28,772 nucleotides of DNA from Candidatus Omnitrophota bacterium (lineage in GTDB: Bacteria; Hinthialibacterota; Hinthialibacteria; Hinthialibacterales; JAKPRU01), in the NCBI GenBank assembly GCA_029570205.1, contig JAKQSI010000074.1, forward strand, positions 1 to 28,772, in the 5' to 3' direction. The notes beneath the pieces are model-generated. The model made no database searches and was not told the DNA's origin. It saw only the letters and a program-made list of their open reading frames with translations. Both the position numbers and the translations under genes were made by a program. Every line of letters starts with the position of its first letter. Positions within the stretch are counted from its first letter, which is position 1. Positions 1 to 18,930 of the stretch are shown here, in pieces.

Positions 1-481
1 CTGAAGGGATAACCCGCATTTCTCACAAGCCTGTCAGAAGAGGGGTGAGACCCGTTGCATAACGCGAGAATAATCGCGGCGAGTGGTTTCTTGAAGAGAT
101 GAGACCATGCAAGTCAGGATAAACAGAGAAACCCGCACCCCAAACCGTCGCTCCAGCAAATCCCGAACCGCCTCCCGTGTCCACAGCACAAACGGAAGTT
201 TCAACTGATCGGGACCGATCCGTGATCGTTCGCACCACCTGCGCGGCCTGCCACCCTTTCAGACGGCTCGGAGACCTCGGACGGCCTTTCGGACGCGATC
301 GCAACGCCTTCCAGCCTCCCGCCCGGTACTGCTTCATCCACTTGCAAAACGCCGCACGCGAAACCTGGAACACCCGGACCGCCTCCGTCTGTTTCATTCC
401 GTCGACCACCGCGTGGACCACGCGTATCCGGAGGTCTTCTTGACTCTCTTGACTCAAGGAACGTGCATCCGGTTTTGTCAT
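1..481 (-). pseudogene. Remnant of an IS630-family transposase (N-terminal half, frameshifted)
   Basis: The first 90 residues from the ATG at 481 form the helix-turn-helix region typical of IS630-type transposases, with the segments MKQTEAVRVFQVSRAAFCKW and GRPRSPSRLKGWQAAQVV. Near 205-222 the frame breaks. The expected continuation, PDQLKLPFVLWTREAVRDLL then ERRFGVRVSL, is present in another frame, consistent with a loss of about two bases. Further decay follows before the window edge: SLQETTRRDYSR recalls the family's TPQKPLRRAYER, and another frame change is then needed. The DDE catalytic half is missing or lies outside the window, so no active transposase can be made from what is seen. 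The AT-richer stretch just upstream (about 490-545) may contain the element's end, but I could not find both inverted repeats. Confidence 0.8.
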
Positions 482-5078: not shown

Positions 5079-6308
5079 TCAGCTCCCCGACGGCAGAGGC
5101 GACTCCACAAAGATCCGGTTGAAGCGTTGCAGGGGAGCCAAGCCACGAGCATCCATTGTGCCCTTTGCAGATACCCCGGGTTGCGTGCGAATCACAATCG
5201 GTACCACCGTACACAATTCCAGCGGCTGCGAGAGATCCTCTTTTTGCCCCGGGCGCGGCGCGTCAATTTCAACACGAACCATCAGACGAATCAGACCGTC
5301 CTTTGCCTGATTTAAATTGAAGGAGATCTGTTTCGGGTCTACACCTTTCTCGTTGTTCTCTGTAGATCCCAGAAGATAATCGGCGAAATTCTCTTTGGCT
5401 GTAGTCAGTTTCCGAACATTCCCGTCCTTATCCGTGGAAGACAGATATCCGACTTCCTGGTCGCCGAGAAGTTCGAAAGTCACCTTGGCATTGCGGTCGG
5501 CCGCCTCATCGGAACTTATCGCACTTCCGTCCCGATTCTTCAGTTCAAAAGTGAGATCATAGGAACGTGTTCCGGTCGAACCGGGAGTAATATACACAAT
5601 CGGCGGATTCACAGTAATACGGAAAGATTCCGTATCCAGCCCGCTCGCCGGCCTCGGAGTCGGGGTAGCGTTCGGATCAACAGACTCGGTTGTCCCCAGG
5701 CCGGAAGGCGGACGAACCTGTTCCGGATTCACGGTCGGTGTGGGTTCGACCTCTTCACCGTTTCCCCCGGAAGCCGTACACGTAAGACTGATATCATCAA
5801 GCAGAATCCGCCTCGTGATCCCCTTCACCTGAAAGGCAAGCGTGCGGTCTCCCAGTACCTTAAAATCATCGTCCATGAAGGATATCTCCACCTTACCCGG
5901 ATTGGCGGCATTGTTTCGATATTGATCGACATCAAATACTCGCCCGGCGAAACTCAGGAACAGCCCGGTATCGGACCCTACCGGTGGAGCATTCAGAATC
6001 TGAAAACTGATATAGAAATTGCCCCTGCCCTGCGCAAGGAGTTCGGCTACCTTAGACAGAGGGATCACCTGCGCCAGAACACCCGCCGGGCCGACAACCT
6101 CCCCGGCATACTCCCCGTTGACAAACACACGTCGGCCTCCCTCCCACCCCAGCGCCCTGTTCGGGGAAGACGGATCGGCAGCGGTAAACTCTCCGTTGGT
6201 GATCACGTTATCCCCCCCAACCTGGGCGGCCGTGTCCTGGGGGATCATCAGACAAAGTCCTGCTATTGCGATACACGCTGCAAGGATTGACATTTTCATC
6301 GTGGTCAT
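5079..6308 (-). CDS. Secreted two-domain protein, last gene of the pseudopilin operon
   Basis: A 409-residue protein not assigned to a known family. Residues 1-29 form a Sec signal peptide ending DTAAQ. The N-terminal domain (about 33-180, starting DNVITNGEF and ending RILLDDISLTC) looks like a jelly-roll carbohydrate-binding or galactose-binding module: the NGEF start, the mention of a surface-exposed GWEGG and the closing LLDDISL strand are typical of such folds. A Pro/Thr-rich linker (about 183-220) connects it to a C-terminal beta-rich domain (FRITVNPPIVYITPGSTG onward) that I do not recognise. The ATG at 6308 has AGGAG eight bases upstream; the longer reading lacks a signal peptide at its start. 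It follows the GspK-like gene by about 200 bases on the same strand. A role as client or partner of the pseudopilin tip is an inference from position. Confidence 0.75.
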   Translation of the reverse strand: MTTMKMSILAACIAIAGLCLMIPQDTAAQVGGDNVITNGEFTAADPSSPNRALGWEGGRRVFVNGEYAGEVVGPAGVLAQVIPLSKVAELLAQGRGNFYISFQILNAPPVGSDTGLFLSFAGRVFDVDQYRNNAANPGKVEISFMDDDFKVLGDRTLAFQVKGITRRILLDDISLTCTASGGNGEEVEPTPTVNPEQVRPPSGLGTTESVDPNATPTPRPASGLDTESFRITVNPPIVYITPGSTGTRSYDLTFELKNRDGSAISSDEAADRNAKVTFELLGDQEVGYLSSTDKDGNVRKLTTAKENFADYLLGSTENNEKGVDPKQISFNLNQAKDGLIRLMVRVEIDAPRPGQKEDLSQPLELCTVVPIVIRTQPGVSAKGTMDARGLAPLQRFNRIFVESPLPSGS

Positions 6309-6390
6309 TAGAACATCTCCTTGGGAGCGTTCCGTCTTTCCGGCTCCCGAACTGGTTGCTGATCCGCCGTTCACCCGTTCTACCGCCATT

Positions 6391-6467
6391 GGTGGGGTAC
6401 GGGAATCTTGAGAATGCCCCTCGTCTGTCTGCGTGAGTTTGGGCAATCTGTGATTCCCGCCCCCACC
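6391..6467. other. Imperfect inverted repeat between the GspK-like gene and the secreted protein gene
   Basis: GGTGGGG-tac-GGGAATC at 6391-6407 is nearly complementary to GATTCCC-gcc-CCCACC at 6452-6467, with a 44-base loop. It could be an mRNA processing or stability structure that sets the ratio of the two cistrons. There is no T-run. Confidence 0.3.
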
Positions 6468-6506: not shown

Positions 6507-9500
6507 TCACCTCCGATATACACTCTTATACCGTCGCGAAGCCGCAACTTCCCCTTCACCGGCAATCGCTTTACCGCCCGTCACCACGTGGAACACACGC
6601 GAACTGACCGTGGTCATTGCGGACAGGCGGTGCATCATCTCCTCCATATCGCGCGGGGTCAGCGTATTCTCCCCGCTCAGGTTCAATCGTTTGTTGAGAC
6701 GCTCGCGCAAATCCCCCACACCGTCCGTAACACCATCCCCGGTCCGATCCAGATCGCGCCGGACAGCGGCAGCCATCCGGTCCCTCCGTTTCAAATGAAC
6801 CAGATCGGACAGGAAACGGCTGATATCCTCGTACGGCCCATCATCCGGCAGCGAAACCTCTGTGGAAGCATAAACCTCCTGCACACTCGAGCGACGATCC
6901 TGGACATCCTTCATCCCAATCGCATCATCCGAAAGGATTTTCTCGATGGAGGGAACATTCGACCATTTGGACGTGGAAGAAAACTCCCTGAGAAAAGCCT
7001 TGCTCCGGCCCACGCTGGGCAGCTTGTATTCGACACTGTCATCCAGGGTTCCCCGGCTGGACACATCATCGTCGATTTCAGCCACTCCCATTTGTTGATC
7101 CCGTCCCAGTGGATTTCGTCCCTCGATAATGTAATCGGCCACCATCGAGTTGATCGTAAACCGTTCCTCAAGGTCCCGGATCCGCGAAGGATCATCGCGA
7201 ATCGGCGGTGCGGCAGGCAGCGCGGCCAGTACTTCTCGAATCGCCGTGTTCACATTCACCAATCCGGGTGTGACCGGCGAATCGCTGGTGGTAACCATGC
7301 TGTAAAGAAGCGAGTATTGATTCTCCATCTGGTCAAGGCGTTCTCTCTGGGCAAGAATCAACCGGTCGGAGTCATTTTCATCGCTGGGAATGAGACGCTG
7401 GCCTAATTCGGCGTTGGAGTCGATCTGGTTCCGGTAGATTGCCTTGTCTTCCAGCCGTTGCGGGATAATCGGACCGCAAACTGTCTCAAATCGGCCGCCG
7501 GTCAAGATTCGCGAAATTTCGCCGGGCGTGGCCAATAGTCCGTTCTTGACAAACGGCGTGTTGTCGACAATATCGAAACGGTCCCGTTGCGACGGTGTAT
7601 CGATCAACCGACGACGCCTGGGATACGCGGGCACATAACCGGCGTTCGCCCGACCCGGCGTCCCCGCAATCAACGCCATCCGCGCATTCTCGTTCGCACT
7701 GTCGGAGTTCCCGCTCAGGCGACCTCTTCCACACAGTTCAATTCCGTAAAAGTAGTAATTGTCATCCAGCGTATTCATAATGTCCGGAGTGGTTTTCCGC
7801 ATAATCATTCGCAGAACAATCAGCGGTTCCTGTTTTTCGGAGCTATCCAGATCCTGATACAGGTCCTGGAAACTCTTCCGAAGATCGACTGTGAACGCGG
7901 TGTCTCCATCCCGCAGTTTCGTGAACACGTCCAACCCAAGAGGATTGAGTGAATTAGCCTCCAGCTCCGGTTGGTTGTAGGCTCCGTCTTCGCGCTCTTT
8001 TCCCGGATCGACCACGGTCCAGATGGGATTGGTCAGGACTTCGCCGACAATGGCCGGGAAAGAACCAAGTTCCTGGCACTTTCCGCGAACACGGACAGTC
8101 AGATGGTCATCGACATCCGGATCGAATCCGGCCCGGATCAATTCGCGCAACCCCAACGTCCACGTATAGCGAACCAGGTCGCCCGGATATGCTCGCCCGC
8201 TCGACGGAAGGTCCAGAGGACTGACCAGAATATTTGTGTAATTCTCAAACCCGCCCGCCATCTGTTTAAACAAAGTACCGCCGCCGAACTCTGGACAACG
8301 TGCCGGACCGCCCCACGAATTCCCATCGGGGTCAAATCCTGTCGCGCCCGGATCCGGCGCGTCACCGACGAAATCCCACCCGCCCTGATAACGGCGGTCA
8401 TCCAGGTCTGTTGCAGGATTCTCCGAAACAACCAGGGAGGGATTTGCGCTCAGGGACCGATTCCCATACAGCGTTACCGTGAGAGGATTTCTCCCCTCTT
8501 CCCCCGGCTGCACGGCAAATGTCTCAACAGCGGCCTCTCGTGCCAACAGCCGCATTGTCGGCGTGAATCGCTGTGTATCCTGGTTTCGATCCGGTCGCTT
8601 CTCCGTTACAACCTGGGTCGGATCGCTTCGCTCGAAAGTCTCCATACCCCGGTACCCCGGCAAGGCAATCACGTCCAACGACGCAATCTCGTAAAGCGGC
8701 TTCGAGGGATCCTGCACCGGCAGTCGAAATACATTGCCGGGAATATCCACCACCAGGTTGTTGAAGGTGGTCTTGTATTCGAGACGATCGACCTCATTCC
8801 CTGCCGGATCGGTCAACGTAACCGTTTTCAAATCGTAATTGTCCGTCAGGATATCGTTCTCCCGATCGACCAGTTTGAAGGTTGTCAACTCATCCACCGG
8901 ATTGTGAGCGGGGGAAAGCGCTCCCGATGCAACCGGCGCCAGTACCGTCACATTCTCATCGAATGCGGGATAATTCGCTTTCGCCCATGTCAGGAATCCA
9001 TCGCGATCATGGACCAGCAACAGATAGTTATTGTCCATTCGGATATCGTCCTGCGTTCGGGTCCTTCCGGCCAATCCCCCACGCTCCGTGGGATAAGCCG
9101 CACGATCCCAGGGACGTCCCGGAAGAGGAATCCCGTTATCCAGAGCGGTCTCTCGACCGTCATCCTCTTCAAACAGCGGTTTGATTCGCGGAATAATTGG
9201 TCGTACGCCGTTTACCGTCTGCAGAATGTATTTCCCGTAAGGCGTGTTGATCGTCCATCCGGTTAAGTCAATGTCGTCGGGTGTCAGGTTCACTAATTCC
9301 AGGTATTGGGCCGACAGGTTCATCAGCTCAATCCGGTCGAATGTAGTCATGTAATACCCGACCGCGGGCGGATTGGCTTTAATCTGGACCGTCAGACGAC
9401 CATCTGAATCTACTGTTGCCCGGAAACTGGTATTTCTCGGATATAAACGATACGGCAGGCGAAGCATCGAGGTTGCCACCAGATTACTCGGATTTTGACC

Positions 9501-12500
9501 TTCTGATGGAGCCACAAATGTGCCGCTTATCGGATTCATAAGAAACTGATAGTTATACGCCTGCGCCAACCGCAACTCCGGCGAGGAAGCCAGGTAAAGC
9601 GCCCACTTGTTGTAAAAATCATTGCCCAATCCACGAATGCCCGGAATCACATTCGCGTTGAGGTATCGGACATAAGCCGGAGGCATCTTGGGTGTGTAAT
9701 GCAGATACCCGTTTAGGGCAAAACCCGCCTTTCCGCCATATTCCAGCGGCAGGATAGGCATGAGTCCATCGACCGCTTCCTGGTTATCCGGATCCTGATA
9801 GAAGAAATCCGACCGCATTAAAACTCGTTCCGAATTGATATAATACTCTACTTCCCCCCGAAGAAAATCCAACGGATCCAGGTACAGAACCACGTCGTAC
9901 ACTCCGGGCGGGACATTCTCGAAAATCCAGGTTGCCATTTCGGCTTCCGAACCGACTCCGCTGCCGCCACCACCGCCGGTTCCGCCACCTTCCGATCCTT
10001 CCCCGCCCTGGGCCGTTACCACCTGCGTATTCGTAACGGCAAACACAATACTCGGCGCCATGGAATCATAGAGTCCGGCCGCTGTCAGGGAGGAATACGG
10101 CAATACCGTGTTCTGAAATCCACGGGGGCGGACAAGGATCGAATTGCTCCAATTGGTATCCTTGATATTTGTCCCGCCGACGGATCCATACACACCGTCA
10201 TCATCGGAACCGCTGCCCACAACGAACCGGCCATTCGGGCCGTTGGTAGTCCAGACATAGCCGCCTTGCCCGTCGTCCTGCAACGAGGTCAGCGTCTGTT
10301 CCGCTTCCAGACGGATCATCGGTTTCACCAGCGCCTCATTGATCCGAACCCCTTCCACACCGCGATAGGTCACCCGATTTGTAACCTCCGGCGGATTGGG
10401 AAGAAGCAATTCTATCTCGTTCTCCAGTAACGCCTTCTGCTGACGATTCGGTCCGGAAAGAAGCTGGGGATTGAATTCAAAAGCACGCTGACGAGTTGAG
10501 GTAATTCCCCTCTCGAAAGTGAAAACTGTGGGAGGATCCACCAAAACCAGGTCTTCCGGTTGCAAGCCCAGTACCGCCTGCACATCCGGGTCGCCCGAAA
10601 CAGGCATCGGAAATGGCTGGTCAATATAATCCGCCATATTCAGAATGAACTGAAACTCCGGCGGGTCTTCATCCATCCGCCCGTCTTCATCATCATCCCA
10701 CGCGGCGACATACCGCTCGCCGAGTTCATCAACCTCGCCGTCTCCGTCGTTGTCTACCAAGTCTCCATCCGCGCGGTACATCGCCGCGATCACCTGGGGA
10801 TCACGAAAATCGGCATATCCATCGCCGTCATCGTCCGAAAAACTGGTCAGTCGATCGTTGGTATTTTGAGTGCGCAGTTTTGTGCTCTGACGCTCCTCTG
10901 CCAGATCTCCCGCCGCAGTCCCTTCGGGAGCCTTAGTAGACACTCCGATTCCGGGATACCCATCGTCATTGGCATCTCCCGACGGATCTTCATTCAGATG
11001 CCATTCCGGATCGTAACTGATCATCCAATCGCCGTTGGAATCGCCGGTATCGTCGATCACGCCGTCGCCATCGTCATCCACACCGTTGCCCTCCTGGACC
11101 ATTCCGGCGAGCAGGTCGCCCCGATTGCTTTCCTCGCGCGGACGGTCGTCATCCCCCACCTCGCGCAGACGATGATCCTCCCGATCCTCTGAGTTCTTGC
11201 CTTCGTCCGTCTGCCCGTCCCGGTCGTCATCCATACTATTCCCGATATAATACGGAGCGCCGACATCCGGTTCTCCATAGCGATCGAAATCGGCGCTGGG
11301 ATACCCGTTTCGATCCCAGTCATCGCCGGGTTCGTCGATCAATCCGTCACCGTCATCATCCTTTTGATTGATTCCATCACCGATCTTGTCGTCCGTTAGG
11401 CCATCGCCGCGTTCGTCGATTCCGTTCCCCGGACCTTCTCCGATCGCCTGCCAATCCCCGTCGTTATCCACCTGCATGGCAAAGAAATCACGAACAGTCA
11501 GCTTCGGTCCGTATTGGAATTGCGATGCAACCTCCTGCGTGTCCGTCGTGGTCCAATTCGAAAGCAAATTCGGATTCAGTTTCAGGAACTCGATTCCTTC
11601 GGCGCTCAGCGACTGGGAAATCTCATCCGCCTCGGAATATACGGTGGCGAAGTTATCGATTTTCGTTAATGTCAACGGTCCGATCTGGGAAAGCATGTCG
11701 ATTTCATCCAGCGTGGCAAACGGGTGATCGTCTCCGCGCGGGGAGTTCGGAGTGAATTCATCCGGCTCGTCGATTCCCTCATCCGGTTCATCGATCACTC
11801 CGTCGCCATCGTTATCGATCCGGTCGCCCAGACGGAACGCCAGGACTTCACTCTGGCTCAGTTCTCCGGCCTGGGGAATACGATGTCTCGGTTGTCCGTC
11901 GGCTTCATCTGAAGCCCCGATATATCGTTCATCCTCTTCGTCAACCAGGCCGTCACCGTCATCATCCTTCCCATTGCCTGCCAGGACATGGAGGACATAT
12001 TCGGGTTGCCGGTTCACATTCTCGAACACTTCGTGCAGCGGACGAACCTCCTGAATATCTTTACTGTTGTCCCCATCATCATCCCCGGACTTACCGGGAG
12101 CGGCATAGCTGGAACCTCCGCCGTTCACGTTCCCTTGCCGATAATTGACAATTCGCTTGGCGATCTCATCCGCCTGCTGAATCATCCGCCCGTGCAGGAA
12201 GACCGCCAGATCGATCTCAAAAGGCGTTGCTCCCTGGCCGTAGGAGTAGCTGTTGCCGTCTCCACTGGTGTTCCCGGCATAGTTGATGTTGATCTTCCCG
12301 GATTCGTCAAAAACTCCCTGGGCATCGCCATCTGCATCAAACCCCGTTCCCTGTGGGAAGAAGCGCCCATCCCGGCGAAGATCTAACCCATCCTCATCCA
12401 CCTGTCCGTCTTCGTCATCATCGTAAGGCTCGCCGTTGTCGATAGTTCCATCCAGGTTGTCGTCAACACCTGCAAATCCGGGGAATCCATCCGCTGTCAT

Positions 12501-12998
12501 AATGCCCCGCGTATTAGTCGGACCCGTGGTATCTCCCGGGGGATCTTCATCAATTCCCAGCGGCGCCGCGATCGGTAAAGAAGTCCCGCGTCGCACGGCT
12601 GTCGACCAGGGATTGTACCGGGCGCTGCGCGCGTCGAAACTCGTATCGTTCGACAGGAATCCGGCTACGCCGACCTTCAACGAGGCATCATTCTGAGAGA
12701 TATATCGAGGCTGTCTTTTCCCCAACACGTACTTGCCGTTCGTGGCCGCCAATTCCGTATCCACCAGGGACAGACTGCCCCCTATTCCCGCTTCAGCGGC
12801 CTCTGTCACCTTGGAGGTCTCGGTATAACTCAACACCGTGAGTTCCTCCATACGCAGAGAATAACTGAAGCCAAGCAGAATCAGGCCGAACACAGTCAGA
12901 AGCGCCAGCACGGTCAGCAAGGCGATCCCTTGCTGGTTATACCGAGCCGCGCTCTCCGTGATCGGGTAATGATGGCAACCTCGTCTGGAATTGTTCAT
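6507..12998 (-). CDS. gspK: Giant GspK-like minor pseudopilin with acidic repeats, carbohydrate-binding-like and lamin-tail modules
   Basis: The product is 2163 residues; GspK proteins are usually about 300-350. GspK hallmarks: a prepilin segment cut after Gly24 (QQG then IALLTVLALLTVFGLILL) with Thr instead of Glu at mature position 5; FDESGKININ near residue 230; HPFATLDEIDMLSQIGPLTL, the usual second helical segment, near 405; VNVNTAIREVLAALP near 1915; and the C-terminal SSRVFHVVTGG with final VYRR. Inserted between them are about a dozen acidic DxDxDGxxDE units (residues about 175-780), a region starting MIRLEAEQ (about 890-1070, CBM6/35-like) with a Gly-rich segment, and a lamin-tail domain (QYLELVNLTPDDIDLTGWTI, about 1225-1260 onward). 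In known systems GspK caps the pseudopilus with GspI and GspJ and binds calcium. ATG 12998 is preferred over TTG 13022: GAGG lies six bases upstream. Confidence 0.8.
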   Translation of the reverse strand: MNNSRRGCHHYPITESAARYNQQGIALLTVLALLTVFGLILLGFSYSLRMEELTVLSYTETSKVTEAAEAGIGGSLSLVDTELAATNGKYVLGKRQPRYISQNDASLKVGVAGFLSNDTSFDARSARYNPWSTAVRRGTSLPIAAPLGIDEDPPGDTTGPTNTRGIMTADGFPGFAGVDDNLDGTIDNGEPYDDDEDGQVDEDGLDLRRDGRFFPQGTGFDADGDAQGVFDESGKININYAGNTSGDGNSYSYGQGATPFEIDLAVFLHGRMIQQADEIAKRIVNYRQGNVNGGGSSYAAPGKSGDDDGDNSKDIQEVRPLHEVFENVNRQPEYVLHVLAGNGKDDDGDGLVDEEDERYIGASDEADGQPRHRIPQAGELSQSEVLAFRLGDRIDNDGDGVIDEPDEGIDEPDEFTPNSPRGDDHPFATLDEIDMLSQIGPLTLTKIDNFATVYSEADEISQSLSAEGIEFLKLNPNLLSNWTTTDTQEVASQFQYGPKLTVRDFFAMQVDNDGDWQAIGEGPGNGIDERGDGLTDDKIGDGINQKDDDGDGLIDEPGDDWDRNGYPSADFDRYGEPDVGAPYYIGNSMDDDRDGQTDEGKNSEDREDHRLREVGDDDRPREESNRGDLLAGMVQEGNGVDDDGDGVIDDTGDSNGDWMISYDPEWHLNEDPSGDANDDGYPGIGVSTKAPEGTAAGDLAEERQSTKLRTQNTNDRLTSFSDDDGDGYADFRDPQVIAAMYRADGDLVDNDGDGEVDELGERYVAAWDDDEDGRMDEDPPEFQFILNMADYIDQPFPMPVSGDPDVQAVLGLQPEDLVLVDPPTVFTFERGITSTRQRAFEFNPQLLSGPNRQQKALLENEIELLLPNPPEVTNRVTYRGVEGVRINEALVKPMIRLEAEQTLTSLQDDGQGGYVWTTNGPNGRFVVGSGSDDDGVYGSVGGTNIKDTNWSNSILVRPRGFQNTVLPYSSLTAAGLYDSMAPSIVFAVTNTQVVTAQGGEGSEGGGTGGGGGSGVGSEAEMATWIFENVPPGVYDVVLYLDPLDFLRGEVEYYINSERVLMRSDFFYQDPDNQEAVDGLMPILPLEYGGKAGFALNGYLHYTPKMPPAYVRYLNANVIPGIRGLGNDFYNKWALYLASSPELRLAQAYNYQFLMNPISGTFVAPSEGQNPSNLVATSMLRLPYRLYPRNTSFRATVDSDGRLTVQIKANPPAVGYYMTTFDRIELMNLSAQYLELVNLTPDDIDLTGWTINTPYGKYILQTVNGVRPIIPRIKPLFEEDDGRETALDNGIPLPGRPWDRAAYPTERGGLAGRTRTQDDIRMDNNYLLLVHDRDGFLTWAKANYPAFDENVTVLAPVASGALSPAHNPVDELTTFKLVDRENDILTDNYDLKTVTLTDPAGNEVDRLEYKTTFNNLVVDIPGNVFRLPVQDPSKPLYEIASLDVIALPGYRGMETFERSDPTQVVTEKRPDRNQDTQRFTPTMRLLAREAAVETFAVQPGEEGRNPLTVTLYGNRSLSANPSLVVSENPATDLDDRRYQGGWDFVGDAPDPGATGFDPDGNSWGGPARCPEFGGGTLFKQMAGGFENYTNILVSPLDLPSSGRAYPGDLVRYTWTLGLRELIRAGFDPDVDDHLTVRVRGKCQELGSFPAIVGEVLTNPIWTVVDPGKEREDGAYNQPELEANSLNPLGLDVFTKLRDGDTAFTVDLRKSFQDLYQDLDSSEKQEPLIVLRMIMRKTTPDIMNTLDDNYYFYGIELCGRGRLSGNSDSANENARMALIAGTPGRANAGYVPAYPRRRRLIDTPSQRDRFDIVDNTPFVKNGLLATPGEISRILTGGRFETVCGPIIPQRLEDKAIYRNQIDSNAELGQRLIPSDENDSDRLILAQRERLDQMENQYSLLYSMVTTSDSPVTPGLVNVNTAIREVLAALPAAPPIRDDPSRIRDLEERFTINSMVADYIIEGRNPLGRDQQMGVAEIDDDVSSRGTLDDSVEYKLPSVGRSKAFLREFSSTSKWSNVPSIEKILSDDAIGMKDVQDRRSSVQEVYASTEVSLPDDGPYEDISRFLSDLVHLKRRDRMAAAVRRDLDRTGDGVTDGVGDLRERLNKRLNLSGENTLTPRDMEEMMHRLSAMTTVSSRVFHVVTGGKAIAGEGEVAASRRYKSVYRR
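10665..12471 (-). repeat. Acidic DxDxDGxxDE repeat block in the GspK-like protein
   Basis: Irregularly spaced units such as VDDNLDGTIDN, DDDEDGQVDED, KDDDGDGLVDEED, RIDNDGDGVIDEPDE, SMDDDRDGQTDEG, NGVDDDGDGVIDD and LVDNDGDGEVDELGE recur over about 600 residues. They match the 12-residue calcium loop pattern shared by thrombospondin type 3, dockerin and MopE-like motifs. In the DNA they appear as recurrent gtcatcatc and ccgtcgccatcgtc runs, so they may be sites for expansion by recombination. Confidence 0.75.
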
Positions 12999-13043: not shown

Positions 13044-14432
13044 TTACGATGTTACACCGCCTGGTTTCTGTATCGGGGGAACGTTGTTGTTGGGCAAGAA
13101 AACCCGTGTACTGAACCTCTGCGGCGGCTGACTGTGATCGCGATCCTGCACATAAATCTCGATTTCAACCACATTCGGCAGACCGTCCGTTGTGGCGTTG
13201 ATCTGGTTCACCAACGCGCTGTATTTCTGATTGGAAAGCAGCTGGCCGACCCCCGGATTCTGCACTGTGCCCCGCAAATCTGCCAGGATTTGTCCCAGGG
13301 GGTCCCTCGGGAAAGCATCCAACGATTCATTGGCGACCGGCGTTGTGTATCGGCTGGGATCGTTTGTGGCCACGTCCGCAGAAAAAGCGGTGATATTCCC
13401 ATCGAATACCCGCACAACCCTGTCGAACAAAAGCGTCTCACGGGCCGAATCCCATTCCCGCGTAACCCGCCAGGAATCCTGATTGTAATCATAATACCAA
13501 AACCGGAACCGCAATCCGCGAATATCGTAAGCCAGAATCTCAAACTCGCTGATCTGACGATCATTCGAACTCCCGTTCAGCACATCGTCCGCATATCGAT
13601 CCCAGATATCCCATATCAGTCCGACAACCCGGGGTTGATATCCCACGTTGACCCGCACAAGACCATCCGCGCTTCGTGTGGCCAACGGAGCCGGAAGGAA
13701 TCGCTCGCCGGACGGCTGGTTGCGGTTTACCAGGAACTGTCCCACATAAAGAGCGTCCACCTCCGTCTCCGCTTTCCGAGATCGTCGGAGCAATCGCGTC
13801 CCGATACTGTTCAACCCGTAGGAAACCTCGTTCAGGATCAACGGGCCGCCGGGAGAATCCTGTTGCACAGTCACAAAATGGAGCAAATCGCTGGGGAACA
13901 TCCCGATGTCTTCATCCGTGCGGCTGTCCACCCAGTCCGCGGAATAGAACCACGGCATGTTCTGAGAAGGGCTGCGATGATCGCTGTCCAGCCCATCCAG
14001 CCACTCTTCGTCGATCTTCCCGTCTCCATCCTCGTCTTCTCCCGCGCCGGGGGTCCATTGCGACGTGGAGGTGATACTGCCGGGCTTGCGGGTCACCGCG
14101 CGGTCACGGTGTATCCCGGCAAATCGGAGGCGCGGCGCGCTCTCCTGTCCCGCCATCACCGGAGCCACACTCTCCGGAGTGAGATACGCAGACTGGATTT
14201 CCTCCGCGAGAAAGTTCAGCGTCGTGCGGGCATTCTCCGCCAACTCCATTTTCAGAACCGCTTTCTCCCGAGTATCCAACGTGACTCGGAATGTAGCGGC
14301 CGCGATGGTCGCCAAAATGCCCAAGATTCCCATCGAGACCAGGAGTTCCACCAGGGTGAAACCCCGTGCCCGATTCTCTGGAATAATCCTGCGCCTTCTC
14401 ATGATCGATCCTCGATTCTTTTGTCTCTCCAT
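13044..14432 (-). CDS. gspJ: GspJ/PilW-like minor pseudopilin
   Basis: A 462-residue protein, about twice the usual GspJ length. A basic leader ends in RARG, followed by FTLVELLVSMGILGILATI. This gives Phe1, Glu5 and a hydrophobic helix, the signature for cleavage and N-methylation by prepilin peptidase. Downstream, AENARTTLNFLAEEIQSAYL is the usual GspJ/PilW helix, and the C-terminal VEIEIYVQDRD with STRVFLPN is the typical closing strands. A single acidic unit, EDEDGDGKIDEEW (about residue 130-142), links it to its neighbours. In T2SS, GspJ joins GspI and GspK in the tip complex of the periplasmic pseudopilus. Two starts are possible: ATG 14432 with AAAGGA nine bases upstream, or ATG 14402 with GAGG seven bases upstream, which gives a shorter and more usual leader. 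It lies 13 bases after the I-type gene. Confidence 0.8.
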   Translation of the reverse strand: MERQKNRGSIMRRRRIIPENRARGFTLVELLVSMGILGILATIAAATFRVTLDTREKAVLKMELAENARTTLNFLAEEIQSAYLTPESVAPVMAGQESAPRLRFAGIHRDRAVTRKPGSITSTSQWTPGAGEDEDGDGKIDEEWLDGLDSDHRSPSQNMPWFYSADWVDSRTDEDIGMFPSDLLHFVTVQQDSPGGPLILNEVSYGLNSIGTRLLRRSRKAETEVDALYVGQFLVNRNQPSGERFLPAPLATRSADGLVRVNVGYQPRVVGLIWDIWDRYADDVLNGSSNDRQISEFEILAYDIRGLRFRFWYYDYNQDSWRVTREWDSARETLLFDRVVRVFDGNITAFSADVATNDPSRYTTPVANESLDAFPRDPLGQILADLRGTVQNPGVGQLLSNQKYSALVNQINATTDGLPNVVEIEIYVQDRDHSQPPQRFSTRVFLPNNNVPPIQKPGGVTS

Positions 14433-14445
14433 GGTCCGATATCCT

Positions 14446-15912
14446 TTACGGTCCCATGTAGCTCATAACCATCCGGTTACGCGAACTTTCATCACTCGAC
14501 TTGATCGGCAGATATCCGACCAGCTTGTAGGAGAATTCATAACAATCTTCGTCGATTACGCCATCCAGATCGTTGTCGGCTCCGTCGCGTGCTTCTTCAT
14601 CAATCCCCCACGAAATCGCGCCGTACCGCAACGGGGTCTGGCCCGCACGGGGGACAATCGCCAGCCGCTTCGGATGAACCGATGCCTGGTCGCCATCGTT
14701 ATCCTCTCCGTCCCCACCCCAGCTGATGACTATCTCCACGCGCAACACACCGGGAACCGAAGAGGCAATACAATCCTCATCCACCAACCCGTCCCCGTCA
14801 TCGTCCAACCCATTTCGGATCTCTTCATCCATCTTTCCATCTCCGTCATTGTCCACTCCATCACCCAAATCCCCCATGAGAGATCGCAACGCCAATGCGC
14901 TGCCTTCAGGAACCTTCGGAATGTCCACATCGGGAACCACCCCGACGAACACCTGCCAGGCGAATAGATCGTCCGGCGGACCGAATCGAGCCGGGGACCA
15001 CGGGAATCGCGCCAGACTGCAATCCTCATCGATTAGTCCGTCCCCGATACCTCCCTTGCCCGATGAGTTCACCGTGGCCCGATCCTGATAATCAAAAACT
15101 TCTTCATCCACCTGGCCGTCCCCATCGTTGTCTTTTCCATCTCCGGCAAGAATCGGGCGAAATCCTTTTCCCTGAACGAAACACGACCCCAGACGGCAGT
15201 CTTCATCAATCAGTCCATCCCGATCATCATCAATTCCGTTGCAGATTTCTTCGTCGATATATGGCTCCGGATCGTATCCGAAATTCCCGTCCTGAAGCAT
15301 CACCACGTTCAGCGCGTATCCCAGGGACCTGGCTCCTGCCGGAAGAAAATTAGCCGGAAACACCCCATCACCGGTATCATCCACAATCCCGTCGCCATCG
15401 TCATCTACCCCGTTGCCCAACAAATAGGTCGGTTCACCGAACCCATCAAAGTCGATATCCGGTTTCCCGTTTCCATTGAGATCGACTGACATCCGACGCT
15501 GCGGATTGTTGAAATTGTAATGCCAATCCCCGTCATCATCGAACCCGTTCCCCGGAATCGGGATGGGGCAGGAAACAAGTATCTCATTCCCCGCCGCGTC
15601 ATATCCGGTCACCGTCACTACCGGAAAATCGGTGTCATCCGCTTTCAGCCCCTCGTAAATCATTTTTGCCAGCAGGGATGCCCGGGTAAAATCCTCCGAC
15701 CGCTGCGCCGCCGCCAATCCCACGGGAAACACCCGCACAATCGCCAGCAGCCCCAGGCCCAGAATGGCCGCCGCCACGACAACCTCCAGGAGCGTAAACG
15801 CACCCCTGCGTTCCGGCTGTCTTCGTTTCAATGTCTGTTTGTCGCGATTGTTGCTTATCATGGTCGCTCTATCGCTCCTCGGAGTCTGTCGTGGATTACG
15901 GTTCTTCATCAT
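14446..15912 (-). CDS. gspI: GspI/PilV-like minor pseudopilin with MopE-like acidic repeats
   Basis: The product is 488 residues, whereas GspI is normally about 120-150. A basic leader ends ERRG, then AFTLLEVVVAAAILGLGLLA, the GspI/PilV prepilin signature with Glu at mature position 6. The rest is dominated by about ten acidic units, among them NGVDDDGDGIVDD, NGIDDDRDGLIDEDC, DGKDNDGDGQVDEE, DGVDNDGDGKMDEE, NGLDDDGDGLVDEDC and DGADNDLDGVIDEDC. Several end in DEDC and one begins EICNG, which matches the MopE-type metal-binding motif more closely than the units in the K protein do. Cysteines around the units could form disulfides after export. The start at 15912 has AGGAG six bases upstream; ATG 15861 would give a shorter leader but a weaker site. 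It is the second gene of the operon, between H and J. Confidence 0.8.
   Translation of the reverse strand: MMKNRNPRQTPRSDRATMISNNRDKQTLKRRQPERRGAFTLLEVVVAAAILGLGLLAIVRVFPVGLAAAQRSEDFTRASLLAKMIYEGLKADDTDFPVVTVTGYDAAGNEILVSCPIPIPGNGFDDDGDWHYNFNNPQRRMSVDLNGNGKPDIDFDGFGEPTYLLGNGVDDDGDGIVDDTGDGVFPANFLPAGARSLGYALNVVMLQDGNFGYDPEPYIDEEICNGIDDDRDGLIDEDCRLGSCFVQGKGFRPILAGDGKDNDGDGQVDEEVFDYQDRATVNSSGKGGIGDGLIDEDCSLARFPWSPARFGPPDDLFAWQVFVGVVPDVDIPKVPEGSALALRSLMGDLGDGVDNDGDGKMDEEIRNGLDDDGDGLVDEDCIASSVPGVLRVEIVISWGGDGEDNDGDQASVHPKRLAIVPRAGQTPLRYGAISWGIDEEARDGADNDLDGVIDEDCYEFSYKLVGYLPIKSSDESSRNRMVMSYMGP
14548..15552 (-). repeat. Acidic MopE-like repeat block in the GspI-like protein
   Basis: About ten units of the form NGxDDDGDGxxDED occur, four of them directly followed by Cys. 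They are separated by 5-60 residues of ordinary sequence, so the block is interspersed rather than strictly tandem. The unit consensus is shared with the K-type protein, which suggests common origin or convergent recruitment of the same metal-binding loop. Confidence 0.75.
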
Positions 15913-15971: not shown

Positions 15972-16619
15972 TTATCCTCGATATTCCGTTGTGGGGAACG
16001 GGGCCCCATATCCATAATCATAAACACGCACACGTCCGGTCAAACGCAAAACCTCAATGGAATTCGCCAGAGTTCTCTGATCTTCCTTTTTCGGGTCCAC
16101 ATTGTCCCCAACGCGAGCCAAATGGATATACAGGCTTATGGATTCTGCTGTGGCATCCGAACTGAAATAACATTTTGTCATCTGACCCCGATAATTGAAC
16201 TCGGCATAATAGACCGTTGAGTTGGTTCCGCTGCCCGGCTCGTGCCCGTTGAACGATGTAATGGCGGCCCCGCTGGGAAGTCGCTTCGGATCGCTCACCG
16301 GAACCCATTTCCCATTCTCCAGCTTCTCAATCCAAACCTCCTGGGGAAGAGGAGCTTCCTCCTGCAAGGAACCCTGCTGTGGCACATTGAATACAACACG
16401 ATGCGAAATGCGGGTGGCAATCGCAAGCTGCCGGGCCTGGCGAAGGGTAGAAGCGGTGATATCGGTCGCCGAACCCAGCCTTGCCCGGTTGATGAAGCTC
16501 GTATAACTCATCGTCCCGATGGTCGCGAGAATTCCGATGATCGAGAAAACCACCATCATCTCAATCAGGGAAAACCCACTCCGGCTCCGGTCGCCATATT
16601 TTTGTATGCGAATTCGCAT
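15972..16619 (-). CDS. gspH: GspH/FimT-like minor pseudopilin
   Basis: A 215-residue protein, a normal size for this family. The leader MRIRIQKYGDRSRSG precedes FSLIEMMVVFSIIGILATIG, so prepilin peptidase would cut before Phe with Glu at position 5. The helix continues through INRARLGSATDITASTLRQA and RQLAIATRISHRVVFNV, a GspH/FimT pattern where the soluble domain begins. The C-terminal part is beta-rich (AEFNYRGQMTKCYF, SIEVLRLTGRVRVYDYG). Unlike its neighbours it has no acidic repeats. GGAGG lies eight bases upstream of the ATG. It is the first cistron of the H-I-J-K operon, following a leader of about 200 nt. Whether it serves a T2SS or another pseudopilus cannot be decided, because no secretin or ATPase is in the window. 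Confidence 0.82.
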   Translation of the reverse strand: MRIRIQKYGDRSRSGFSLIEMMVVFSIIGILATIGTMSYTSFINRARLGSATDITASTLRQARQLAIATRISHRVVFNVPQQGSLQEEAPLPQEVWIEKLENGKWVPVSDPKRLPSGAAITSFNGHEPGSGTNSTVYYAEFNYRGQMTKCYFSSDATAESISLYIHLARVGDNVDPKKEDQRTLANSIEVLRLTGRVRVYDYGYGAPFPTTEYRG

Positions 16620-16882: not shown

Positions 16883-18166
16883 TTACGGTTGTGAGGGTTC
16901 CGCATCCCGAGCAGTACGAAATCCGTAGCTGCCATGACGGTCTTGAGGGGAACGGGGATAGCGATGGCTGGCCCTGGCGTAATAATCGTTGAATGTCCAG
17001 GAGCCGCCCCGCAAGACACGCAGGTTTTCTGAATACTTTTCTAATATCGTAGCGGTATTCGGATAGGGCTGAAACCGGTCCGCCACCCATTCGGCCACAT
17101 TTCCCGCCATATCCAGCGCGTGATATGGGCTTTCCCCCTCCGGAAAAGACCCCACCGACGCAGTTCCGCGAATCCCGCTTTCCCAAGTATTACAGCGCGT
17201 CGAGTCAAAATAATCTCCCCACGGATAGATCCGCCCATCCGTTCCGCGTGCGGCCTTTTCCCACTCCCGTTCTGTCGGCAATCTGGCCTCCGACCACTTC
17301 GCGTAGGCCGTTGCATCTTCCCAATTTACCCAGGCAACCGGATGATCCTCCAGCCCTGAAGGAATAACTCCCCGTTCCCAGTGCATCGGTGTCCGATAAC
17401 CCGTCGCGTCCGTAAAACGCTTATACGCAGCATTTGTAACTTCCGTTTTATCAATATAAAACGACGGAATATCGATTGTCGCACAGGGCGACTCGCAAGG
17501 GTCGCCATTGTCCGATCCGAATACAAACTTTCCACCGGGAACATACACCATACCCGGATACTTGTTCAAAATCTCATCGGGAATCTTCGGTGTCGGTGTG
17601 TCTGTGGGCCGTAGTTCGGGAAACGGAGTGGGGGTGGAGAACTTTTCAAGAGGGATCGAGAATAACTCCGAAATAATGGAACGACCCCATTCCCCGATCA
17701 GATCTTCCACTGCGCACGGAGATTTTTCTCGAAACAGGTCCAGAAGAAAATCCTCCGAGGCGCAATCGATCAGCCGGACAGTCACCCCCACCTTCTCACC
17801 CTGCCGGTCCACATGCCCCGCAAGCACCCGATCCGCACCCAGAAGCCGCCCCATCGCCACAAACTCACGAAGCTCAAAACAGGGCCAGGGAAATCGGTGC
17901 GCCTGAAGAATGGAATACATGGACTGCTTGTCAATAACACGATACAACCCGCTTCGTGTGACTTCCCTGCGGATAAATTCGCTGAACGCAGCCGCCTCGG
18001 CAGCGGCGGCTTCTCCCTGCGATTTGAGGTCGGTAATAACCAGGAGCGGAGGTGGAGTCGGATAGGCCGACTGCCCATAAACAGATGGGATAAACCAGGC
18101 TGATAAAAGAAAAATCCAGAAAAAACAGGGAGTTGCGACACGGAATACCCCGCCCGGATTACGCAT
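16883..18166 (-). CDS. Exported protein with CsgG-like domain fused to FGE-sulfatase-like (SUMF1) domain
   Basis: A 427-residue protein. Residues 1-31 form a signal peptide ending SVYGQ. Residues 40-170 (PPPLLVITDLKSQG, RSGLYRVIDKQSMYSILQ, MGRLLGADRVLAGHVDR) resemble the CsgG/TolB-like domain that begins many envelope lipoproteins. A Pro/Thr linker follows (177-195). Residues 205-421 are a formylglycine-generating-enzyme fold: MVYVPGGKFVFGS, FYIDKTEVTNAAYKRF, HPVAWVNWEDATAYAKW, RLPTEREWEKAARG, NVAEWVADRF, LRVLRGGSW, YGFRTARD. True FGE uses paired cysteines in the C-terminal core; none is present there, so enzymatic activity is unlikely and ligand binding more plausible. ATG 18166 is chosen for its signal peptide and its two-base gap from the upstream stop. 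A longer reading starts at 18184. It is co-transcribed with the TPR gene. Confidence 0.82.
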   Translation of the reverse strand: MRNPGGVFRVATPCFFWIFLLSAWFIPSVYGQSAYPTPPPLLVITDLKSQGEAAAAEAAAFSEFIRREVTRSGLYRVIDKQSMYSILQAHRFPWPCFELREFVAMGRLLGADRVLAGHVDRQGEKVGVTVRLIDCASEDFLLDLFREKSPCAVEDLIGEWGRSIISELFSIPLEKFSTPTPFPELRPTDTPTPKIPDEILNKYPGMVYVPGGKFVFGSDNGDPCESPCATIDIPSFYIDKTEVTNAAYKRFTDATGYRTPMHWERGVIPSGLEDHPVAWVNWEDATAYAKWSEARLPTEREWEKAARGTDGRIYPWGDYFDSTRCNTWESGIRGTASVGSFPEGESPYHALDMAGNVAEWVADRFQPYPNTATILEKYSENLRVLRGGSWTFNDYYARASHRYPRSPQDRHGSYGFRTARDAEPSQP

Positions 18167-18168
18167 AG

Positions 18169-18930
18169 TTAAATTCCAAACCATCGCCCTGAATGCTGAC
18201 GTTCAATCAGTGCGAGAAGCTGTTGGCGAGCCTGTGAATGATTGGGATTCAACTCCAGTGCCCGCTCGTACTCCTGACGGGCCAATTCCCACTGGCGCTG
18301 GTCCTGATGAATCCTTCCCAAAACATAGTAAATCTCTGCACTTTGAGGATTTAACGCTTCCGCTTTCGCCAGTTCCTCAATCGCTCCTTCATCCCAACAG
18401 TGGTCATAATACTCGAATGCAATGCGCGTGTACGTATTGCACATCTCATCGACAACCTGCTTGGCCAGTTCGTCGTTCGGGTTCTCGGCCAGAACGGCTT
18501 GGAATGCCTCAAGGGCTTTACGGTAATCCTGTTGCGCAATCAGTTGTCGCGCGGTCAGAACGCCTTCCTCCCAGCGTTTTTGCTTGTGACGAAGGTTGAT
18601 CGACTCAATGCGCCGGTTCGCCTCGACATTCTGAGGATTCCGTTTGAGCGCCTGAAGATACTCCAGAACAGCCTGTTCATCCGCCGCTTTCTTCTCGTAA
18701 TGTTCACCGCGAAGGAGATAAAAGTCTGATTCCTCTCCCTTTATGACTTCCTTAATGTTCGATTTCCGCAGGCCGACAAAGTCTCCGGTGACAGTTTCGA
18801 CAACCAGAAGCGTCCCGGTATCCTCGATAATTCGGCACGGCAGAACCCCGGTTTCGGTGCGAACCTGGTCCGGTACGGCCCAAACAAACGTGATCGGCAA
18901 GAAAATAAGAAAAAGTGTAATTTTTTTCAT
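18169..18930 (-). CDS. Exported tetratricopeptide-repeat protein
   Basis: A 253-residue protein. The ATG at 18930 starts MKKITLFLIFLPITFVWA, a classic signal peptide, with GAGGAA eight bases upstream; the longer reading adds 13 odd residues. Residues 20-60 (TGVLPCRIIEDTGTLLVVET and DFVGLRKSNIKEVIKGEES) form a small beta-rich domain of the kind that precedes TPRs in envelope proteins. Residues 70-250 hold about four TPR units, for example AVLEYLQALKRNPQNVEANR, KALEAFQAVLAENPNDELAK, AIEELAKAEALNPQSAEIYY and ARQEYERALELNPNHSQARQ. TPRs are protein-binding scaffolds. Its stop is two bases before the start of the SUMF1-like gene, so the two proteins are probably made together and may interact in the periplasm. 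The partner is unknown. Confidence 0.85.
   Translation of the reverse strand: MKKITLFLIFLPITFVWAVPDQVRTETGVLPCRIIEDTGTLLVVETVTGDFVGLRKSNIKEVIKGEESDFYLLRGEHYEKKAADEQAVLEYLQALKRNPQNVEANRRIESINLRHKQKRWEEGVLTARQLIAQQDYRKALEAFQAVLAENPNDELAKQVVDEMCNTYTRIAFEYYDHCWDEGAIEELAKAEALNPQSAEIYYVLGRIHQDQRQWELARQEYERALELNPNHSQARQQLLALIERQHSGRWFGI

What the first reader, a model, noticed from the sequence alone, without database searches (positions are those of the whole stretch)
6507..12998. Giant GspK-like pseudopilin (2163 residues) with inserted domains
The prepilin signal without Glu5, FDESGKININ, VNVNTAIREVLAALP and the VYRR C-terminus are all GspK features, but the protein is about six times the normal length. 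The extra mass consists of a 600-residue acidic-repeat stretch, a CBM-like region and a lamin-tail domain placed between conserved GspK segments. In the known T2SS tip, GspK is the cap that limits and presents the pseudopilus. A cap this large could reach outside the cell or act as an adhesin or a client-recognition platform. I know of no described GspK with this architecture, but I cannot search for one.
Basis: partly seen in the sequence, partly recalled or inferred. Interest (0 to 1): 0.7.

Follow-up and report, generated by a model that had tools for sequence, protein, structure and literature searches.

The report
Giant tip subunit of bacterial pilus
A 2,163-residue protein found in every sequenced member of a little-known bacterial phylum is an outsized relative of the cap subunit GspK, swollen by a large insertion, and it most likely forms a built-in sticky tip on a retractable surface hair (type IV pilus) rather than a part of a secretion pump.

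Summary
The ORF is real: window 6507-12998, minus strand, 2163 aa. It is a GspK-family minor pilin by its first ~300 residues (HMM-HMM E 1.6e-11) and last ~345 (E 6.8e-8), colinear; the middle ~1360 residues do not match GspK. The insertion holds a lamin-tail domain (LTD), itself split by ~350 residues of CBM-like sequence (CBM identity unproven). Ten DxDxDGxxD calcium-type loops lie in the N-terminal third (shuffled mean 0.07). It is last in an H-I-J-K pilin cassette; K is found in all 14 held genomes of the phylum.

The T2SS reading is not favoured. The genome has three T2SS loci, each with its own ordinary GspK. Smaller LTD-GspK proteins in unrelated genomes lie in PilT-containing type IV pilus clusters. 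The window's H, I, J and K mostly score higher against those cassettes than against their own T2SS sets. Best reading: a K-position minor pilin with a built-in PilY1-like tip adhesin. Precedents are ComZ, modular pilins and probably Verru_Chthon cassette protein A, so this is a new variant of a known kind. AlphaFold failed (pLDDT 25 and 36); the fold is untested.

The parts
6507..12998 (-). Giant K-position minor pilin (GspK family), 2163 aa
   Evidence: Single open frame; colinear HMM-HMM match of both ends to GspK; present in 14/14 genomes of the phylum
12855..12998 (-). Class III (prepilin) signal and transmembrane helix, G|IALLT, no Glu5
   Evidence: Translation; signal position check
12126..12998 (-). 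GspK N-terminal part, including first NxN motif FDESGKININ (12282-12311) and the start of the alpha-domain
   Evidence: hhalign E 1.6e-11 to GspK of the same phylum
10662..12464 (-). Region with ten DxDxDGxxD calcium-type loops, interleaved with the GspK alpha-domain and the first part of the insertion
   Evidence: 10 loops versus shuffled mean 0.07; many loop Asp nearly invariant in the family
11631..11735 (-). GspK-like PFATLDEIDMLSQIG..FATVYS segment, last GspK-like segment before the insertion
   Evidence: Second hhalign hit of the N-terminal half, E 2.8e-5; motif conserved in family consensus
10317..10349 (-). First strand of the lamin-tail domain (VRINEALVKP), separated from the rest
   Evidence: LTD profile hits begin at position 17-23 in every member; I.INEV lies 130-350 aa upstream in most members
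9321..10316 (-). ~330-residue CBM6/35-like (galactose-binding-like) segment nested in the lamin-tail domain; identity unproven
   Evidence: Pattern RLEAE...W.FE..P.G.YDVVLY...FDRIEL conserved; Pfam and PDB searches do not confirm
8616..9314 (-). Main part of the lamin-tail domain (QYLELVNLTPDDIDLTGWTI...)
   Evidence: PF00932 E 2.5e-4 here; hit in 11/11 members, best 1.3e-6
7551..8543 (-). Further inserted region of unknown fold (GGFENY...DDHLTVRVRG...)
   Evidence: Conserved in the family; no family or GspK match
6510..7547 (-). GspK C-terminal part: KNGPLATPGEIS, second NxN motif VNVNTAIREVLAALP (7215-7259), TVSSRVFHV..VYRR
   Evidence: hhalign E 6.8e-8, colinear; NCBIfam GspK stretch 1923-1944; weak PF03934 hit at 7215-7259
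13044..14432 (-). J-position minor pilin, 462 aa, one calcium-type loop
   Evidence: N_methyl PF07963 E 1.3e-8; conserved cassette; loop
14446..15912 (-). I-position minor pilin, 488 aa, seven calcium-type loops, FPVGL motif
   Evidence: Best NCBIfam hit PilV TIGR02523 E 2.1e-5; loops; conserved cassette
15972..16619 (-). H-position minor pilin, 215 aa
   Evidence: GspH/XpsH-type NCBIfam hits E 9e-9 to 3e-8; conserved cassette
5079..6446 (-). Secreted two-part protein downstream of K: signal peptide, NGdF..GW domain, PTPTP linker, Ig-like-looking C-terminal part; candidate tip partner
   Evidence: Directly after K in the order's genomes whose contig covers this side; no Pfam match

Best explanation
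It is the K-position (GspK/PilX-position, Glu5-less) minor pilin of an H-I-J-K priming set. Its alpha-domain has received about 1360 residues: part of the calcium-type loops, a lamin-tail domain split by a CBM-like segment, and a further region of unknown fold. Shown here: GspK homology of both ends, the insertion, the calcium-type loops, and conservation of the H-I-J-K cassette across the phylum. Inferred: the set primes a PilB/PilT-driven type IV pilus, not one of the three T2SSs. Also inferred: K, having no Glu5, caps the filament so that the inserted domains form the outermost, calcium-stabilised tip that binds a surface or glycan. It would thus build into one pilin what other T4aP get from a separate PilY1. 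The secreted protein encoded next to it (5079-6446) may be a tip partner.
For: (1) HMM-HMM matches of the N and C ends to GspK are colinear (E 1.6e-11 and 6.8e-8), with no match in the middle. (2) Shorter LTD-GspK relatives in other families are clear GspKs: E 7e-22 (1049 aa), 5.5e-19 (769 aa), 4.6e-15 (1012 aa). (3) H-I-J-K order is conserved across the phylum; K is found in 14/14 genomes. (4) The own genome has three separate T2SS loci with their own GspH/I/J/K, GspE and secretin. (5) In G241 the run is PilB-PilT-PilB-PilC-G-G-H-I-J-giant K. In G264 it is PilB-PilT-PilB-PilC-regulators-G-G-H-I-J-giant K. In G184 and G322 giant K is followed by PilM and a secretin. (6) The own genome carries PilB-PilT-PilB-PilC in that same order on contig C89, without pilins nearby. 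(7) Window H, I and J each score higher against the cassettes of other lineages (T4P-linked G241, G264, G127, and G088) than against the genome's own T2SS H, I, J; so does K's N-terminus for three of the four, G241 being at noise level. (8) The concatenated HIJK tree separates the T2SS sets from the rest, UFBoot 80. (9) G040 has an LTD-GspK, one PilT and one extension ATPase, and no secretin found at 92% completeness. (10) The K subunit without Glu5 sits at the tip, and PilY1 uses the same Dx[DN]xDGxxD motif (PMC10191384, PMC7541494, PMC8833165).
Against: In the window itself no T4P machinery is adjacent, so linkage is borrowed from distant relatives. Tree support is modest (UFBoot 80), and minor pilin N-termini are short. 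The lamin-tail match of this protein is below the curated cut-off, and the CBM label is unconfirmed. I did not test whether the genome also has PilY1; if it does, the 'replaces PilY1' step weakens. A 2163-residue tip would have to pass a secretin. There is no structural model.
Confidence: 0.66

Rival explanations
1. It is the pseudopilus tip of a T2SS: an orphan HIJK set used by one of the three T2SSs, the large K recognising clients or reaching out through the secretin.
For: GspK homology; T2SS machinery is plentiful in the genome; HIJK sets of T4aP and T2SS can be interchangeable for piliation (PMC10191384).
Against: Each T2SS already has its own HIJK. H, I and J are closer to cassettes of other lineages, three of them T4P-linked, than to the own T2SS sets. 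Relatives lie with PilT or PilM/secretin genes. G040 has an LTD-GspK but no secretin was found.
Confidence: 0.18
2. It is a DNA receptor at the tip of a competence pilus, like ComZ of Thermus (a large domain inserted in a GspK-like pilin).
For: ComZ is the best structural precedent and binds DNA (PMC6561018). Several relatives carry ComEA-type helix-hairpin-helix (TIGR00426, E 4e-19 and 4e-17), matching solved ComEA.
Against: The window protein itself has no helix-hairpin-helix hit and is strongly acidic (17% D+E, 9% K+R). The helix-hairpin-helix lies in the ordinary GspK alpha-domain rather than in the insertion.
Confidence: 0.08
3. It only looks like a pilin: an anchored giant cell-surface or S-layer-like protein that reused a prepilin signal and GspK pieces and never enters a filament.
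For: Most of the mass is non-pilin; no direct evidence of assembly is available.
Against: Both GspK halves and the H-I-J-K gene order are conserved through the phylum and in other families. The N-terminal helix without Glu5 fits the capping subunit.
Confidence: 0.08

Closest known systems
GspK, minor pseudopilin of T2SS (PF03934/PF21687, NCBIfam NF037980)
   Same: Prepilin signal without Glu5, NxN motif 1, alpha-domain segments, NxN motif 2 and C-terminal TVxSxxF segment, in order; encoded after H, I, J
   Different: About 1360 extra residues in the alpha-domain; curated cut-offs not reached by this protein; relatives are linked to PilT-type pilus genes rather than to T2SS
PilX/PilK of type IVa pili, with PilY1
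   Same: Fourth gene of an HIJK (FimU-PilV-PilW-PilX) set, no Glu5; calcium motif Dx[DN]xDGxxD as in PilY1 (PMC8833165); I-gene best named hit is PilV
   Different: Adhesin-like mass is part of the pilin instead of a separate beta-propeller PilY1; only one relative (G241) hits PilX_N, E 8e-5
ComZ of Thermus thermophilus
   Same: Large beta domain inserted into a GspK-like pilin, proposed tip location (PMC6561018)
   Different: ComZ has a ~380-residue beta-solenoid inserted between the last two strands; here ~1360 residues including a split lamin-tail domain enter the alpha-domain; no sequence hit between them
Verru_Chthon cassette protein A (TIGR02600, 1296 positions)
   Same: Long protein of a four-gene pilin-like cassette; its model matches LTD-GspK relatives at the N-terminal helix, the first NxN motif and the C-terminus
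   Different: Far below its cut-off (332 bits); no match in the inserted middle; the window protein itself does not match
Modular pilins (Streptococcus sanguinis PilB/PilC and >1,200 database proteins)
   Same: Functional module carried by a tip pilin (PMC8179133)
   Different: Those are mostly C-terminal fusions, the most extreme multi-domain case named there being 860 aa; here 2163 aa with nested insertions in a K-type pilin

Membership tests
GspK superfamily (K-position minor pilin) | Prepilin signal, hydrophobic N-helix, no Glu5 | tested here: met
   G|IALLTVLALLTVFG, Thr at position 5
GspK superfamily (K-position minor pilin) | Colinear N- and C-terminal GspK sequence segments | tested here: met
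   hhalign E 1.6e-11 and 6.8e-8, correct order
GspK superfamily (K-position minor pilin) | Curated HMM cut-off (PF03934 24.2 bits; NF037980 130 bits) | tested here: inconclusive
   Not reached by this protein (13.4 and 19.4 bits). The phylum's own T2SS GspKs miss the NF037980 cut-off too (best 92.3). The 769-aa relative G040 passes PF03934 and PF21687
GspK superfamily (K-position minor pilin) | Encoded last in an H-I-J-K set | tested here: met
   Conserved operon
GspK superfamily (K-position minor pilin) | GspK fold (pilin beta-sheet with inserted alpha-domain) | tested here: inconclusive
   Two AlphaFold runs on parts of the protein failed for lack of an admissible alignment: pLDDT 25.5 and 35.8
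T2SS GspK (functional) | Linked to T2SS genes (GspC-F, GspL/M, secretin) | tested here: not met
   None in the window; the three T2SS loci have their own K
T4aP minor pilin set | Linked to PilB/PilT/PilC or PilM-Q | tested here: inconclusive
   Not adjacent in this genome; met in G241, G264, G184, G322
T4aP minor pilin set | HIJK more similar to T4P-linked sets than to own T2SS sets | tested here: met
   Scores for H, I and J; K for G264 and G127 but not G241; tree bipartition UFBoot 80
T4aP minor pilin set | Present at the tip of pili | not testable with these tools
   Needs experiment
Lamin tail domain (PF00932) | Profile match | tested here: inconclusive
   E 2.5e-4, below cut-off here; 11/11 members, best 1.3e-6; above cut-off in G264 and G088 (38.4 and 36.2 bits)
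CBM6/35-like domain | Profile or fold match | tested here: inconclusive
   Pattern only; Pfam and PDB negative

The most novel reading that the evidence does not exclude
A previously undescribed class of 'all-in-one' type IV pilus tip in several bacterial lineages: a K-type minor pilin that holds a lamin-tail domain, itself split by a carbohydrate-binding-like domain, inside its GspK alpha-domain, with arrays of calcium loops in both K and I. It would serve as capping subunit and PilY1-like adhesin in one chain.
Probability: 0.45. Interest if true: 0.66.

Novelty: new variant of a known kind. Interest (0 to 1): 0.52.

Why it matters
It would show that the K position of type 4 filaments accepts an insertion several times the size of the pilin and that lineages apparently relying on this design may not need a separate PilY1-type adhesin. 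It also gives unstudied bacteria (a phylum of which 14 species genomes are held here) a concrete surface-attachment candidate. The two-sided test (pilus tip or T2SS tip) is direct in any culturable carrier of the smaller LTD-GspK proteins.

Tried and rejected
Chance ORF or assembly fusion: rejected, full-length homologues at 44-46% identity in other genera. Structure of the insertion and of the C-terminal part by AlphaFold2: useless models, pLDDT 25.5 and 35.8, because only the window's own and three near-identical sequences were admissible; no fold search was run on them. PDB sequence search with the family profile: no relevant hit. CBM identity by Pfam and PDB: not confirmed. Viral contigs: no relative. 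Literature: no listed paper holds 'lamin tail domain' together with GspK or pilin, and no listed paper mentions the Verru_Chthon cassette. Verru_Chthon A as a direct family assignment: rejected, the window protein does not reach E 0.1 and relatives are far below cut-off.

Full report
What is there. Residue numbers marked P are those of protein P0001, which starts 14 residues before the Met. The prepilin signal is ..NQQG|IALLTVLALLTVFG, with Thr rather than Glu at mature position 5. The gene follows H (215 aa), I (488 aa) and J (462 aa) minor pilin genes on the same strand and is followed by a gene for a 455-residue secreted protein.

Origin. A near-identical gene lies in genomes titled Candidatus Omnitrophota. 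The window's phylum in the held genome set has only 14 species genomes, in 12 genera, and all 14 carry the giant K. In the other genera of the order (G003-G008) it is about 2200-2275 aa where complete; in other families of the class it is about 1773-1808 aa where complete.

GspK membership. Single-sequence family searches give only weak hits for this protein. Profile-profile comparison with 29 GspK sequences of the same phylum's T2SSs (one present twice) is clear. The N-terminal part, through the first NxN motif, matches at E 1.6e-11. The C-terminal part (KNGPLAT.., GLINVNTAxREVLxALP, TVxSRxF) matches at 6.8e-8. The order is preserved, and P-residues 560-1800 do not match. Smaller proteins of the same architecture are unequivocal GspKs: G369, 1049 aa, E 7e-22; G040, 769 aa, E 5.5e-19; G241, 1012 aa, E 4.6e-15. 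The insertion therefore lies inside the GspK alpha-domain, after the FATVYS segment (P~470) and before KNGPLAT (P~1832).

The insertion. In 19 giant or medium K proteins from several lineages the order of landmarks is broadly the same: helix, NxN 1, alpha-domain, I.INEV, a variable gap, Y[VI]ELVN..GW, then NxN 2; some landmarks escape the search patterns in individual proteins. PF00932 hits start at profile position 17-23, so I.INEV looks like the missing first strand of a lamin-tail domain. By eye, the gap is about 30 residues in the 799-aa protein of G275 (a nearly unsplit lamin-tail domain) and a charged, helix-like stretch in G040. It is 131-139 residues in G369, G241 and G088, and 270-350 in the window's order. 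In the larger ones it reads like a CBM6/35-type jelly roll (RLEAE..., GxYDVVLY, FDRIEL), but Pfam and PDB searches did not confirm this. The nested-domain model is an inference from sequence.

Calcium loops. K has 10 strict DxDxDGxxD loops, I has 7, J has 1; shuffled sequences give 0.07, 0.06 and 0. I proteins of the phylum have 7-9 such loops, I proteins of other lineages and of the own T2SSs have none, and ordinary T2SS GspKs of this genome have one each (slightly looser pattern). PilY1 uses the same Dx[DN]xDGxxD motif (PMC8833165). That these loops bind calcium here is inferred.

T2SS or type IV pilus. The genome has three T2SS loci (contigs C1, C38, C59) with their own H, I, J, K, ATPase and secretin, so this cassette is an orphan. 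Outside the phylum, 24 of 372 broadly sampled genomes match the family profile at E 1e-8 or better, although several of those matches cover only the N-terminal helix region of ordinary-size proteins. Among the large ones, G241 shows PilB-PilT-PilB-PilC-G-G-H-I-J-K in one run. G264 shows the same run with two regulators inserted. G184 and G322 have K followed by a secreted protein, PilM, a further gene and a secretin. The window's genome has the PilB-PilT-PilB-PilC block on contig C89 without pilins nearby. Window H, I and J score higher against the cassettes of G241, G264, G127 and G088 than against the own T2SS sets (H was not scored for G088 and T2SS C38, whose signals the script missed). 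K's N-terminus does so for G264, G127 and G088 but is at noise level for G241. A concatenated HIJK tree separates the three T2SS sets with UFBoot 80, which is modest. G040 has an LTD-GspK, one PilT, one extension ATPase and no secretin found at 92% completeness. Together these favour a PilT-driven pilus.

Mechanism. In type 4 filaments the HIJK set primes assembly and is capped by the subunit lacking Glu5; in T4aP, PilC/PilY1 sits on top (PMC10191384, PMC7541494). ComZ shows that a large domain can be inserted in a GspK-like pilin and is thought to force a tip position (PMC6561018). The likeliest reading is that giant K is both the cap and the adhesin. Shown: homology, insertion, gene order, conservation. 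Inferred: pilus type, tip position, ligand binding, calcium dependence. I did not test for PilY1 in this genome.

Novelty. TIGR02600, a 1296-position model of a four-gene pilin-like cassette (the cassette composition is from my own knowledge of the model's name), matches the relatives at the N-terminal helix, the first NxN motif and the C-terminus, so it is probably another large GspK-like group already named. With ComZ and modular pilins (PMC8179133) this makes the find a new variant of a known kind.

Limits. AlphaFold was restricted to sequences of the window and of related-loci loci, which are nearly identical; both models failed. The K fold is thus unproven.

Noticed in passing
window 14446-15912 (-): The I-position minor pilin is 488 aa with seven DxDxDGxxD loops, about three times the usual size; in the phylum I proteins have 7-9 loops, elsewhere none.
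   Followed up: partly
window 5079-6446 (-): Secreted protein with an NGdF..GW domain, PTPTP linker and a further domain, encoded after K in the order; no Pfam match; candidate non-pilin tip partner.
   Followed up: partly
window 16883-18184 (-): TolB_N-like domain fused to an FGE-sulfatase (formylglycine-enzyme-like) domain, next to a TPR protein; of the held loci only the same-genus one shows this pair beside the cassette.
   Followed up: no
window 23-481 (-): Short ORF that looks like the N-terminal helix-turn-helix part of a transposase, apparently truncated; judged by eye.
   Followed up: no
own genome G000: About 87 prepilin N-methylation motif hits in one 4.4 Mb genome, most in small stand-alone ORFs.
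   Followed up: no
G012:C6:191920-192411: A secretin-domain hit lies in a 3549-residue open frame, very large for a secretin.
   Followed up: no
L201:8361-10997 and L202:11914-14277 (-): In G184 and G322 a large uncharacterised protein (879 and 788 aa) lies between giant K and PilM.
   Followed up: no
L098 (G011), L093/L094 (G006), L095/L096 (G007), L062/L063 (G002 genus): Giant K is split over two overlapping frames in G011 and over two contigs in three other genomes, so the gene is prone to assembly breaks.
   Followed up: no
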